Positions 13,761-15,430 of a stretch of DNA of 64,000 nucleotides are shown here, in pieces (positions within the stretch are counted from its first letter, which is position 1; each line of letters opens with the position of its first letter). The position numbers were made by a program, and so were the translations under genes. The DNA comes from Candidatus Dadabacteria bacterium. GTDB taxonomy: Bacteria > Desulfobacterota_D > UBA1144 > Nemesobacterales > Nemesobacteraceae. The DNA is taken from assembly GCA_951812735.1 (NCBI GenBank), contig OX638332.1:1062732-1126731 (forward strand). Reading direction: 5' to 3'. The notes below the pieces were generated by a model. The model was given only the letters and a program-made list of their open reading frames with translations, did not search any database and was not told where the DNA came from.

Positions 13761-13772
13761 GGTATTTTTCCT

Positions 13773-13796
13773 AAAAGACAGGACTTCCTGTCTTTT
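13773..13796 (-). repeat. 11-bp inverted repeat across the IS110 right junction
   Basis: Arms 13773-13783 and 13786-13796 are perfectly complementary around a 2-nt centre. On the minus strand the hairpin ends in CTTTT and could stop transposase transcription. By the guide-RNA alignment the right junction core (13781-13782) lies inside it, so one arm would be flank and the other element DNA. Confidence 0.55.
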
Positions 13797-13875
13797 ATCA
13801 AGCTTAAATTTTATGTATATAGCGAATTTCTTTTTTTAAGATTTCTCCCTGGTTTTTCTTCTTTAACATTTCCTT

Positions 13876-15123
13876 CTACGTGGCATCCGGAAGAGGCTTT
13901 CTGAACTCCTTGTCAAAGAGCTCTCCTTTTTCCAGGATGACGCGGGCGACGAACAAAAGACGGTCGCACACAGTACGAACGGATCTGCAGTAACCATGAC
14001 CTTTTCCCCGAAGCTCTTCGTACCTGGCCCTGCTTACCGGATCATGCTTTACGGCTACCCCTCCCAGAACATGAAACGCGGCTGAGAGGCTCTTGCACAC
14101 AGCCCTTCGCTTTATGACCAGCTTTGTCTTGCCCGATTGTCTCGTCACCGGAGCCGTACCGCCGAGACACCGAATTGCCTCGAAGTCCCGACGGCGTACA
14201 AGGTCCCAGGCCTCGGCCACAAGCGTCGCGAGCACTACAGTCCCCACGCCCGGAATGGATCGGAGAATCTCAATATCGGTCGACCCGCCCCCCTCGGCCT
14301 TAAGCTTTTCGTTCATGGTCTCTATAATCTTATCGATAGAGTCTTTGATCTCCTTGAGCTGACGATCCGCCACCTTCAGCCGCTCAACAACCGATGTTAT
14401 ATGGAAGATGCAGCTCCGCACGGTCGCGTCGCTCACGTTTATTTCCTCGGCCCTCAGTATCTTGAGCGCCTCCTCCGCGCCAATACGCCTTACTCTGTTG
14501 CGTTTGAGAATCTTCTGCACTGTGGAGGCTCTTTTCCCCTTTGCCGCACAAGGACAAGGCATAAGCTCCCAAAGCTCCAGATGCCATGGCCTTACGGTAC
14601 TGCCGAGAAGTTCTTCAAACTGGGGGTAATACCTCCACAGCAGTGCGCGAAGACGGTTTACAAGACGCGTACGCTCCGATGTGAGCTCCTCTCTGGTTCT
14701 GTTGAACTCACGCAGAGCTATGACATCGCAGTCCTGCGGTTCGACGTAGCGGAAGTGCTTGCGGTCCGTGCGGAGCGCCGAGGCGAGAACCAAGGCGTCT
14801 TTTCTGTCATCCTTGGCTCCTGAGACGCAGAACCTGTCCCTGAAGCGGTCAAGCTGCTTCGGATTTATGGAATAAACCATAAATCCCTGTTCACAAAGAC
14901 TTTCCACCACCGGGCCTTGGTTCACCTCTATGGCCACGGCCATGTCGCAGTCCTCAGAGCCTGACACTTCCCTCATCCACTGAGACATTTCAAAAAGACC
15001 TCCTCCGGTATGCTTGAAGCTTTTTTCTCCGACGACGGAACCTTCCTGGTTGACGACGCAGACCTGGTGAGAGTTTTTCCCCCAGTCAATGCCTGCAAAA
15101 AATAGAGATTTACCATTCTTCAT
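13876..15123 (-). CDS. IS110-family DEDD transposase (bridge-RNA-guided recombinase)
   Basis: 415 residues from ATG 15123; a start at 15141 is also possible. The RuvC-like DEDD tetrad is visible: D13 (FAGIDWGKNS), E66 (AIEVN), D106 and D109 (AKDDRKDA). A coiled-coil middle follows. The C-terminal Tnp domain has LRSIPGVGTVVLATLVAE and LGGTAPVTRQSGK with the expected catalytic Ser near residue 330. The frame is intact, so the element may be active. Family knowledge: these enzymes recombine target and donor DNA held by a two-loop RNA made from the element's non-coding end. Confidence 0.95.
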   Translation of the reverse strand: MKNGKSLFFAGIDWGKNSHQVCVVNQEGSVVGEKSFKHTGGGLFEMSQWMREVSGSEDCDMAVAIEVNQGPVVESLCEQGFMVYSINPKQLDRFRDRFCVSGAKDDRKDALVLASALRTDRKHFRYVEPQDCDVIALREFNRTREELTSERTRLVNRLRALLWRYYPQFEELLGSTVRPWHLELWELMPCPCAAKGKRASTVQKILKRNRVRRIGAEEALKILRAEEINVSDATVRSCIFHITSVVERLKVADRQLKEIKDSIDKIIETMNEKLKAEGGGSTDIEILRSIPGVGTVVLATLVAEAWDLVRRRDFEAIRCLGGTAPVTRQSGKTKLVIKRRAVCKSLSAAFHVLGGVAVKHDPVSRARYEELRGKGHGYCRSVRTVCDRLLFVARVILEKGELFDKEFRKPLPDAT

Positions 15124-15149
15124 GTAAATTAATACCTTCATATGTATTC

Positions 15150-15303
15150 GGGTTTGCCGTGATGCTTGACAGAACCAGTACCGGCGCTCGATGGCGCAAA
15201 CTTCCTGTTGGGCATTTATCACGGCGCTTGACCGAGGCGCTTGTCCTGACTAGGTGCTCGATGGCACAGGTAAAATTAGGCAGCTCTCGGTCAGGCAACC
15301 TGT
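15150..15303 (-). ncRNA. Predicted IS110 bridge RNA
   Basis: Non-coding DNA upstream of the transposase folds into two similar arms. Arm 1 is closed by TGACCGAG/CTCGGTCA (15286-15293 with 15229-15236) and capped by GTGC-CATCGA-GCAC (15254-15267). Arm 2 is closed by GCCGTGAT/ATCACGGC (15218-15225 with 15156-15163) and capped by GCGC-CATCGA-GCGC (15184-15197). Both cap loops are identical while the cap stems differ but still pair. The unpaired strands hold guide-like segments that match the flanks (arm 1) and the element ends (arm 2). A TATAAT at 15310-15315 could give a 5' end near 15303. Confidence 0.8.
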
Positions 15304-15430
15304 GAATTAATTATAATTTCGATTTGATTTTTTCGCTTGATTTAAGCTTTTAGAAGGGTACTGGGTAAAATAGAAGTTCCGGGGTGATTCGGCCTCAGGA
15401 CCTGTGCTCCTCACAGTTTAGAAACAGAAA

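What the first reader, a model, noticed from the sequence alone, without database searches (positions are those of the whole stretch)
13781..15364. All four bridge-RNA guides can be read and they define the element's ends
Arm 1: ATTTTACC (15269-15276, minus sense) equals the left flank at 15364-15371, and its 3' strand (15245-15253) complements the right flank next to 13781 at 6 of 7 bases. Arm 2: ACAGGAAGT (15200-15208) equals the right end at 13783-13791 (9/9), and its 3' strand (15175-15182) complements the left end at 15357-15364 (8/8). All four agree on a CC core at both junctions. This predicts the pre-insertion site and suggests a core other than the CT reported for IS621.
Basis: partly seen in the sequence, partly recalled or inferred. 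Interest (0 to 1): 0.88.

Follow-up and report, generated by a model that had tools for sequence, protein, structure and literature searches.

The report
IS110 jumping gene with CC core
A bacterial jumping gene in a Candidatus Dadabacteria genome carries a guide RNA whose four short guides match where it landed and its own two ends; uninterrupted copies of the landing sites in sister species confirm this, so it is a well-supported new member of the known RNA-guided IS110 family that joins DNA at CC instead of the textbook CT.

Summary
(1) Site A is empty in ten sister genomes. In most of them it reads TATTTTACCCTGTCTTTT, exactly the predicted scarless join at a single CC; site B and three other sites also have clean empty alleles. 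(2) Across 13 copies, target guides match their own flanks far better than other copies' flanks: RTG 4.0/5 against 1.5/5, LTG 5.75/7 against 3.55/7, with 0 of 200,000 permutations reaching either value. The left donor guide matches its own right end 9/9 in every copy, through three covarying types. The guides lie in two internal loops of a covarying RNA upstream of an IS110-type DEDD/Ser recombinase. This is an ordinary IS110-group bridge-RNA element in mechanism. The core is CC in the whole genus-level clade and in alphaproteobacterial relatives about 45% identical; published IS621 relatives have CT with a near-invariant T. Corrections: "all four agree on CC" is overstated. RTG and RDG carry GG opposite the core, LTG reliably matches only the first C, and LDG never carries CC. 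The LTG-core spacing is flexible by one base.

The parts
13781..15364 (-). Complete IS110-type element, copy A, including the CC at both ends (element proper = 13781-15362 plus one target-derived CC)
   Evidence: Ends defined by comparison with copy B and other copies and by empty sites in 10 congeners
15363..15364 (-). Left CC core
   Evidence: CCAGTACC starts nearly every complete LE; empty sites have one CC
13781..13782 (-). Right CC core
   Evidence: GGAAGTCC or AGAAGTCC ends every RE
15365..15371 (-). Left target (LT) ATTTTAC
   Evidence: Matches LTG 7/7 in the canonical register; same sequence in empty alleles
13773..13780 (-). Right target (RT) TGTCTTTT
   Evidence: First five bases match RTG at 4/5; same sequence in empty alleles
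15148..15308 (-). Bridge RNA: target-binding loop followed by donor-binding loop, in LE upstream of the recombinase
   Evidence: Covariance model hit, 191 bits (the model includes this sequence); MFE -55 kcal/mol, z -3.2; 8 pairs with compensatory changes
15268..15276 (-). LTG, ATTTTAC|CT, 5' strand of target loop
15254..15267 (-). Inner hairpin of target loop GTGC-CATCGA-GCAC
   Evidence: Compensatory changes GTGC/GCAC, GCGC/GCGC, GCGT/ACGC
15245..15253 (-). RTG, CTAGTCAGG, 3' strand of target loop (reverse complement CC-TGACTAG)
15200..15208 (-). LDG, ACAGGAAGT, 5' strand of donor loop; followed by TT (15199-15198), not CC
   Evidence: 9/9 match to own RE in all 13 copies
15184..15197 (-). 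Inner hairpin of donor loop GCGC-CATCGA-GCGC
   Evidence: Compensatory GCGC/GCGC and GTGC/GCAC
15175..15182 (-). RDG, GGTACTGG, 3' strand of donor loop (reverse complement CC-AGTACC = LE)
   Evidence: 8/8 in copy A, 6-8/8 in the others
13783..13791 (-). RE donor site ACAGGAAGT
13876..15123 (-). IS110 DEDD/Ser recombinase, intact, about 415 aa from the ATG at 15123 (the start is inferred)
   Evidence: Pfam PF01548 and PF02371; NCBIfam NF033542 above cut-off; invariant D5, E58, D98, D101, S322 of the alignment align with the IS621 catalytic region

Best explanation
The feature is an intact IS110-group insertion sequence in a Candidatus Dadabacteria genome. Shown: its LE encodes a structured RNA with two internal loops. 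The first loop carries LTG and RTG, which match the chromosomal target; the second carries LDG and RDG, which match the element's own RE and LE. The element inserts without loss or gain of target bases at a CC dinucleotide shared by the donor junction (GGAAGT-CC-AGTACC) and the target (for example ATTTTAC-CC-TGTC). Inferred from the published IS621 mechanism: the recombinase excises the element as a circle, the bridge RNA pairs with target and circle junction, and DEDD/Ser catalysis exchanges strands at CC. Also inferred: circle closure assembles a TTGATA-17-TACCCT promoter that drives bridge RNA and recombinase.
For: Guide-flank matches exceed all permutations in 12-13 copies. LDG-RE covariation is 9/9 in all copies. 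Empty alleles exist for five insertion sites, including ten genomes for site A and one site empty in the window's own genome. The RNA consensus structure has 8 pairs with two-sided changes and 97.8% paired cells, against 25-38% when slid. The recombinase belongs to IS110 by Pfam, NCBIfam, PDB sequence matches to IS621 and ISCro4 and fold. IS621 guide architecture comes from PMC11208160 and PMC11208158.
Against: No transcript, circle or activity data exist. Some copies fit poorly: G011a LTG 3/7, G009a RTG 2/5, and G004a has TC at its left end. Copies share ancestry, so the permutation result is not a strict p-value. LDG does not spell the core, unlike the published IS621 description.
Confidence: 0.95

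Rival explanations
1. The guide matches are chance matches in AT-rich sequence or leftovers of shared ancestry, and the recombinase chooses targets by protein-DNA contact alone.
For: Copies of one lineage share guides, and some flanks match weakly.
Against: Guides differ between lineages in step with flanks: RTG CCTGA, CCTAA, CCATC, CCTAC, CCACT, CCCAA and CCCAT each match their own RT; 0 of 200,000 permutations reach the observed value. LDG covaries with RE.
Confidence: 0.02
2. The true core is CT, or lies one base away, and CC is an accident of these sites.
For: LTG often reads C-T at the core-facing positions; IS621 uses CT (PMC11208158).
Against: Nearly every LE begins CC and every RE ends CC in the clade; the base after CC in the target is T, A or C and the base after CC in the donor is A, so only CC is common; empty alleles keep one CC. 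RTG and RDG both carry GG. Alphaproteobacterial relatives also have CC at both ends.
Confidence: 0.03
3. Copy A is a decayed element whose ends and guides are fossils and no longer work.
For: Copy A is shared with genome G013 at the same site, so it is not a new insertion. Copies B (interrupted) and C (internal stop) are broken.
Against: Copy A has an intact recombinase with all catalytic residues and 99% identity to B, whose site is uninterrupted in G013 up to the neighbouring IS605-like element, which suggests recent transposition.
Confidence: 0.15

Closest known systems
IS621 (IS110 group, E. coli), the reference bridge-RNA element; PMC11208160 and PMC11208158
   Same: Bridge RNA in LE; target loop then donor loop; LTG/RTG and LDG/RDG order; scarless insertion at a dinucleotide; DEDD plus Ser recombinase
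   Different: Core CC instead of CT; in IS621 relatives the second T is reported almost invariant and is read by G63. LDG lacks the core match. Recombinase is about 80 aa longer and about 20% identical, with three fewer residues between the catalytic Glu and the following conserved segment (hand alignment). No separate 5' stem-loop was identified here.
ISCro4 (PDB 9t56)
   Same: Top PDB hit by fold and by single sequence
   Different: About 20% identity. Its core was not read here.
ISEc21 and other IS110-type elements with seekRNA (PMC11187229)
   Same: Upstream non-coding RNA with bottom-strand match 5' of top-strand match; no target duplication; natural guide changes between relatives
   Different: Different targets and transposase length class (345-385 aa against about 415 aa)
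IS110-family elements on alphaproteobacterial plasmids (Labrenzia, Sinorhizobium meliloti, S. fredii NGR234)
   Same: About 45% identical recombinase; LE CC-TGTTCC or CC-TGTACC and RE GGGGAGT-CC; same two-arm RNA layout
   Different: Different guides and GC-rich targets; some have an RE of several hundred bases

Membership tests
IS110 family (bridge-RNA-guided recombinase elements) | DEDD RuvC-like domain plus PF02371 domain with catalytic Ser | tested here: met
IS110 family (bridge-RNA-guided recombinase elements) | Structured ncRNA in a non-coding end with target and donor loops | tested here: met
IS110 family (bridge-RNA-guided recombinase elements) | LTG and RTG match the genomic target of each copy | tested here: met
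   weak in G011a (LTG) and G009a (RTG)
IS110 family (bridge-RNA-guided recombinase elements) | LDG and RDG match the element's own RE and LE | tested here: met
IS110 family (bridge-RNA-guided recombinase elements) | Insertion without target duplication beyond the core | tested here: met
   Empty alleles
IS110 family (bridge-RNA-guided recombinase elements) | Circular intermediate with junction promoter | tested here: inconclusive
   Joined ends give TTGnnn-16/17-TACCnT or TACTCT in all genus copies; no circle observed
IS110 family (bridge-RNA-guided recombinase elements) | RNA bound by recombinase and required for recombination | not testable with these tools
   Needs experiment
IS110 group (as opposed to IS1111 group) | RNA upstream of the gene, long LE, short RE, no long subterminal inverted repeats | tested here: met
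   RNA at 15148-15308 upstream of the gene; LE about 240 bp, RE about 95 bp by coordinates; no long subterminal repeats seen on inspection of the ends
IS621-type subgroup | CT core dinucleotide with near-invariant T | tested here: not met
   CC core in the clade; IS621 description
IS621-type subgroup | Core included in all four guide pairings | tested here: not met
   LDG core-facing bases are TT, TC or TA; LTG second base is T, C or A

The most novel reading that the evidence does not exclude
A clade of long (about 410 aa) IS110 recombinases, in Dadabacteria and Alphaproteobacteria, uses a CC core in which the base that is almost invariably T in IS621 relatives is C. Core choice is carried mainly by the RTG and RDG (GG), with LDG contributing at most a U-G wobble. 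The protein loop after the catalytic Glu that reads this base in IS621 is shortened, and the LTG tolerates a one-base shift between guide and core.
Probability: 0.6. Interest if true: 0.6.

Novelty: new member of a known kind. Interest (0 to 1): 0.45.

Why it matters
The finding turns a guess from raw sequence into a checked prediction: from one copy the guides gave the exact pre-insertion site, later seen in ten genomes. For the IS110 field it supplies a natural clade with a CC core, a set of paired guides, targets and empty sites, and natural retargeting within one genus. Programmable bridge recombinases are limited by the CT core, so a natural CC-core enzyme is a useful starting point for widening the choice of target sites.

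Tried and rejected
Rfam has no match to this RNA: one sub-threshold miRNA hit, judged chance. I first read the extra C at site A (CCC) as a slip in copy A; comparing register across copies showed that A fits the canonical register (7/7), while B, G013b and G003a use a one-base shifted register. G004a's TC left end was considered as a different core; a relative of the site reads TGTAATTCCCC (L097), so a one-base loss is simpler. Clean empty sites for copies C, G008b and G004a were not found in the genus. The idea that these elements target promoter -10 boxes was looked at but not tested. The covariance model found no matches outside this genus within the phylum. A literature search found no report of a CC core and no mention of IS110 in Dadabacteria in the held library, which does not cover subscription papers or supplementary tables.

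Full report
Observation. The element spans 13781-15364 on the minus strand, with a recombinase at 13876-15123 (Pfam IS110 DEDD and Transposase_20; NCBIfam IS110 RNA-guided transposase above its cut-off).

Copies. The window lies in a 1.59 Mb genome whose close relatives in public collections are named Candidatus Dadabacteria. The genome holds a second copy, B, 99% identical and interrupted by a 6.35 kb insert with a 5-bp duplication, and a 65% relative, C, with an internal stop. Relatives occur in 12 of 14 genomes of the genus. Nearly all LEs begin CCAGTACY and all REs end in (A/G)GAAGTCC, with unrelated flanks.

Empty sites. Flanks joined at one CC were searched in the genus and aligned. Site A is uninterrupted in ten genomes, nearly all reading TATTTTACCCTGTCTTTT; L084, L086 and L087 differ by one to a few bases. 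Site B is uninterrupted in eight genomes (for example CCAATTGTACCTGACAGCAAGG in L088). The G013b site is empty in the window's own genome (98%), the G012b site in G009 (99%), and the G012a site in seven genomes. The G013c site differs by one C in a C run. All fit scarless insertion at CC. For copy A, the target has CCC and the product has CCC on the left and CC on the right, so the second and third C were used.

Guides across copies. For 13 copies with a right flank, RTG matches its own RT at 4.0 of 5 non-core bases against 1.54 for other copies' flanks; for 12 copies with a left flank, LTG matches 5.75 of 7 against 3.55. None of 200,000 permutations reached either value. Because guides are inherited, these are not strict probabilities, but several guide types, each with its own target, make chance untenable. 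LDG equals the RE at 9/9 in all 13 copies, in three covarying versions. RDG matches LE at 6-8 of 8.

Structure. Twelve RNAs fold into a target loop and a donor loop, each with a closing stem and an inner hairpin. Eight pairs show changes on both sides, and 97.8% of cells pair against 25-38% when partners are slid. A single fold of the window RNA has z = -3.2. No Rfam family matches.

Recombinase. Residues D5, E58, D98, D101 and S322 of the alignment are invariant in the genus and in two alphaproteobacterial relatives. Profile alignment places S322 on the IS621 serine S241 and the DEDD segments on those of IS621. The AlphaFold2 model (mean pLDDT 76; the region around the catalytic Ser is below 50) has ISCro4 and IS621 as its best PDB matches.

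The core. IS621 and its relatives carry CT cores, with the T nearly invariant and contacted by G63 (PMC11208158). Here the second base is C at every right end and in nearly every left end. RTG and RDG carry GG opposite the core. LTG carries C then T, C or A. LDG carries T then T, C or A, so at best a U-G wobble to the bottom strand. The segment after the catalytic Glu is shorter here (IEVNQGPVVE against IEATGTYMEPVAE by hand alignment; inference). Alphaproteobacterial relatives have CC at both ends with guides that fit their flanks; in Labrenzia, LTG GGTGATA-C fits GGCGATA-CC, and RTG CCCCTCT fits CCCCTCC (hand reading). The CC core therefore belongs to a wider clade.

Register. Counting from the inner hairpin, the usual LTG core position is the last two bases before the hairpin. 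Copies A, C, G013c, G008b, G012b and G012a use it. B, G013b and G003a fit better with one extra base between. One-base flexibility between LTG and core is thus suggested by natural insertions.

Mechanism. Shown by comparison: guide-target and guide-end matching, scarless CC insertion, and guide change between lineages. Inferred from IS621: circle formation, the RNA-protein complex, and strand exchange. A promoter-like TTGATA-17-TACCCT forms across the RE-LE junction, with 16-17 bp spacing in all genus copies, as reported for other IS110 circles (PMC11187229).

Verdict. The finding is real and the reading is right in essence. It is a new member of a known kind, with a core difference worth testing.

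Noticed in passing
L008:4244-5464 (-), within the 6.35-kb insert in copy B: The insert interrupting copy B carries a 406-aa ORF with pentapeptide repeats followed by a collagen-like GXY stretch, beside IS4-like and split IS256-like transposase ORFs (by eye); 5-bp duplication CCGAT.
   Followed up: partly
L007:1860-1885 (copy C): Copy C has an in-frame TGA upstream of the catalytic Ser codon, so it is probably inactive.
   Followed up: partly
window 15365-15375 and 13770-13780 (joined target A): The target block TCTATTTTACCCTGTCTTTT is about 95% conserved across ten congeners in a spacer that is otherwise 40-70% conserved, so the element landed in what looks like a conserved regulatory site between a ROK-type gene and an MltA-type gene.
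   Followed up: partly
L036, L004, L021 (copies G013c, C, G004a): Guides of this sub-lineage contain TATAATT or ATGTAATT, resembling a -10 promoter box; the G013c site lies 34 bp upstream of a gene. Whether these elements target promoters was not tested.
   Followed up: no
L006:560-700 and L007:600-680: TnpB-like (IS605-type) elements lie about 20 bp right of copy B and directly left of copy C.
   Followed up: no
L020, L028, L019 (G009a, G003b, G007a): These copies have poly-C target guides (CTCCCCCC), and two lie next to C runs; the G009a RTG does not fit its right flank.
   Followed up: no
L038:1506 and L039:1506: Near-identical solo left-end remnants without a complete bridge RNA lie at the same place in two genomes.
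   Followed up: no
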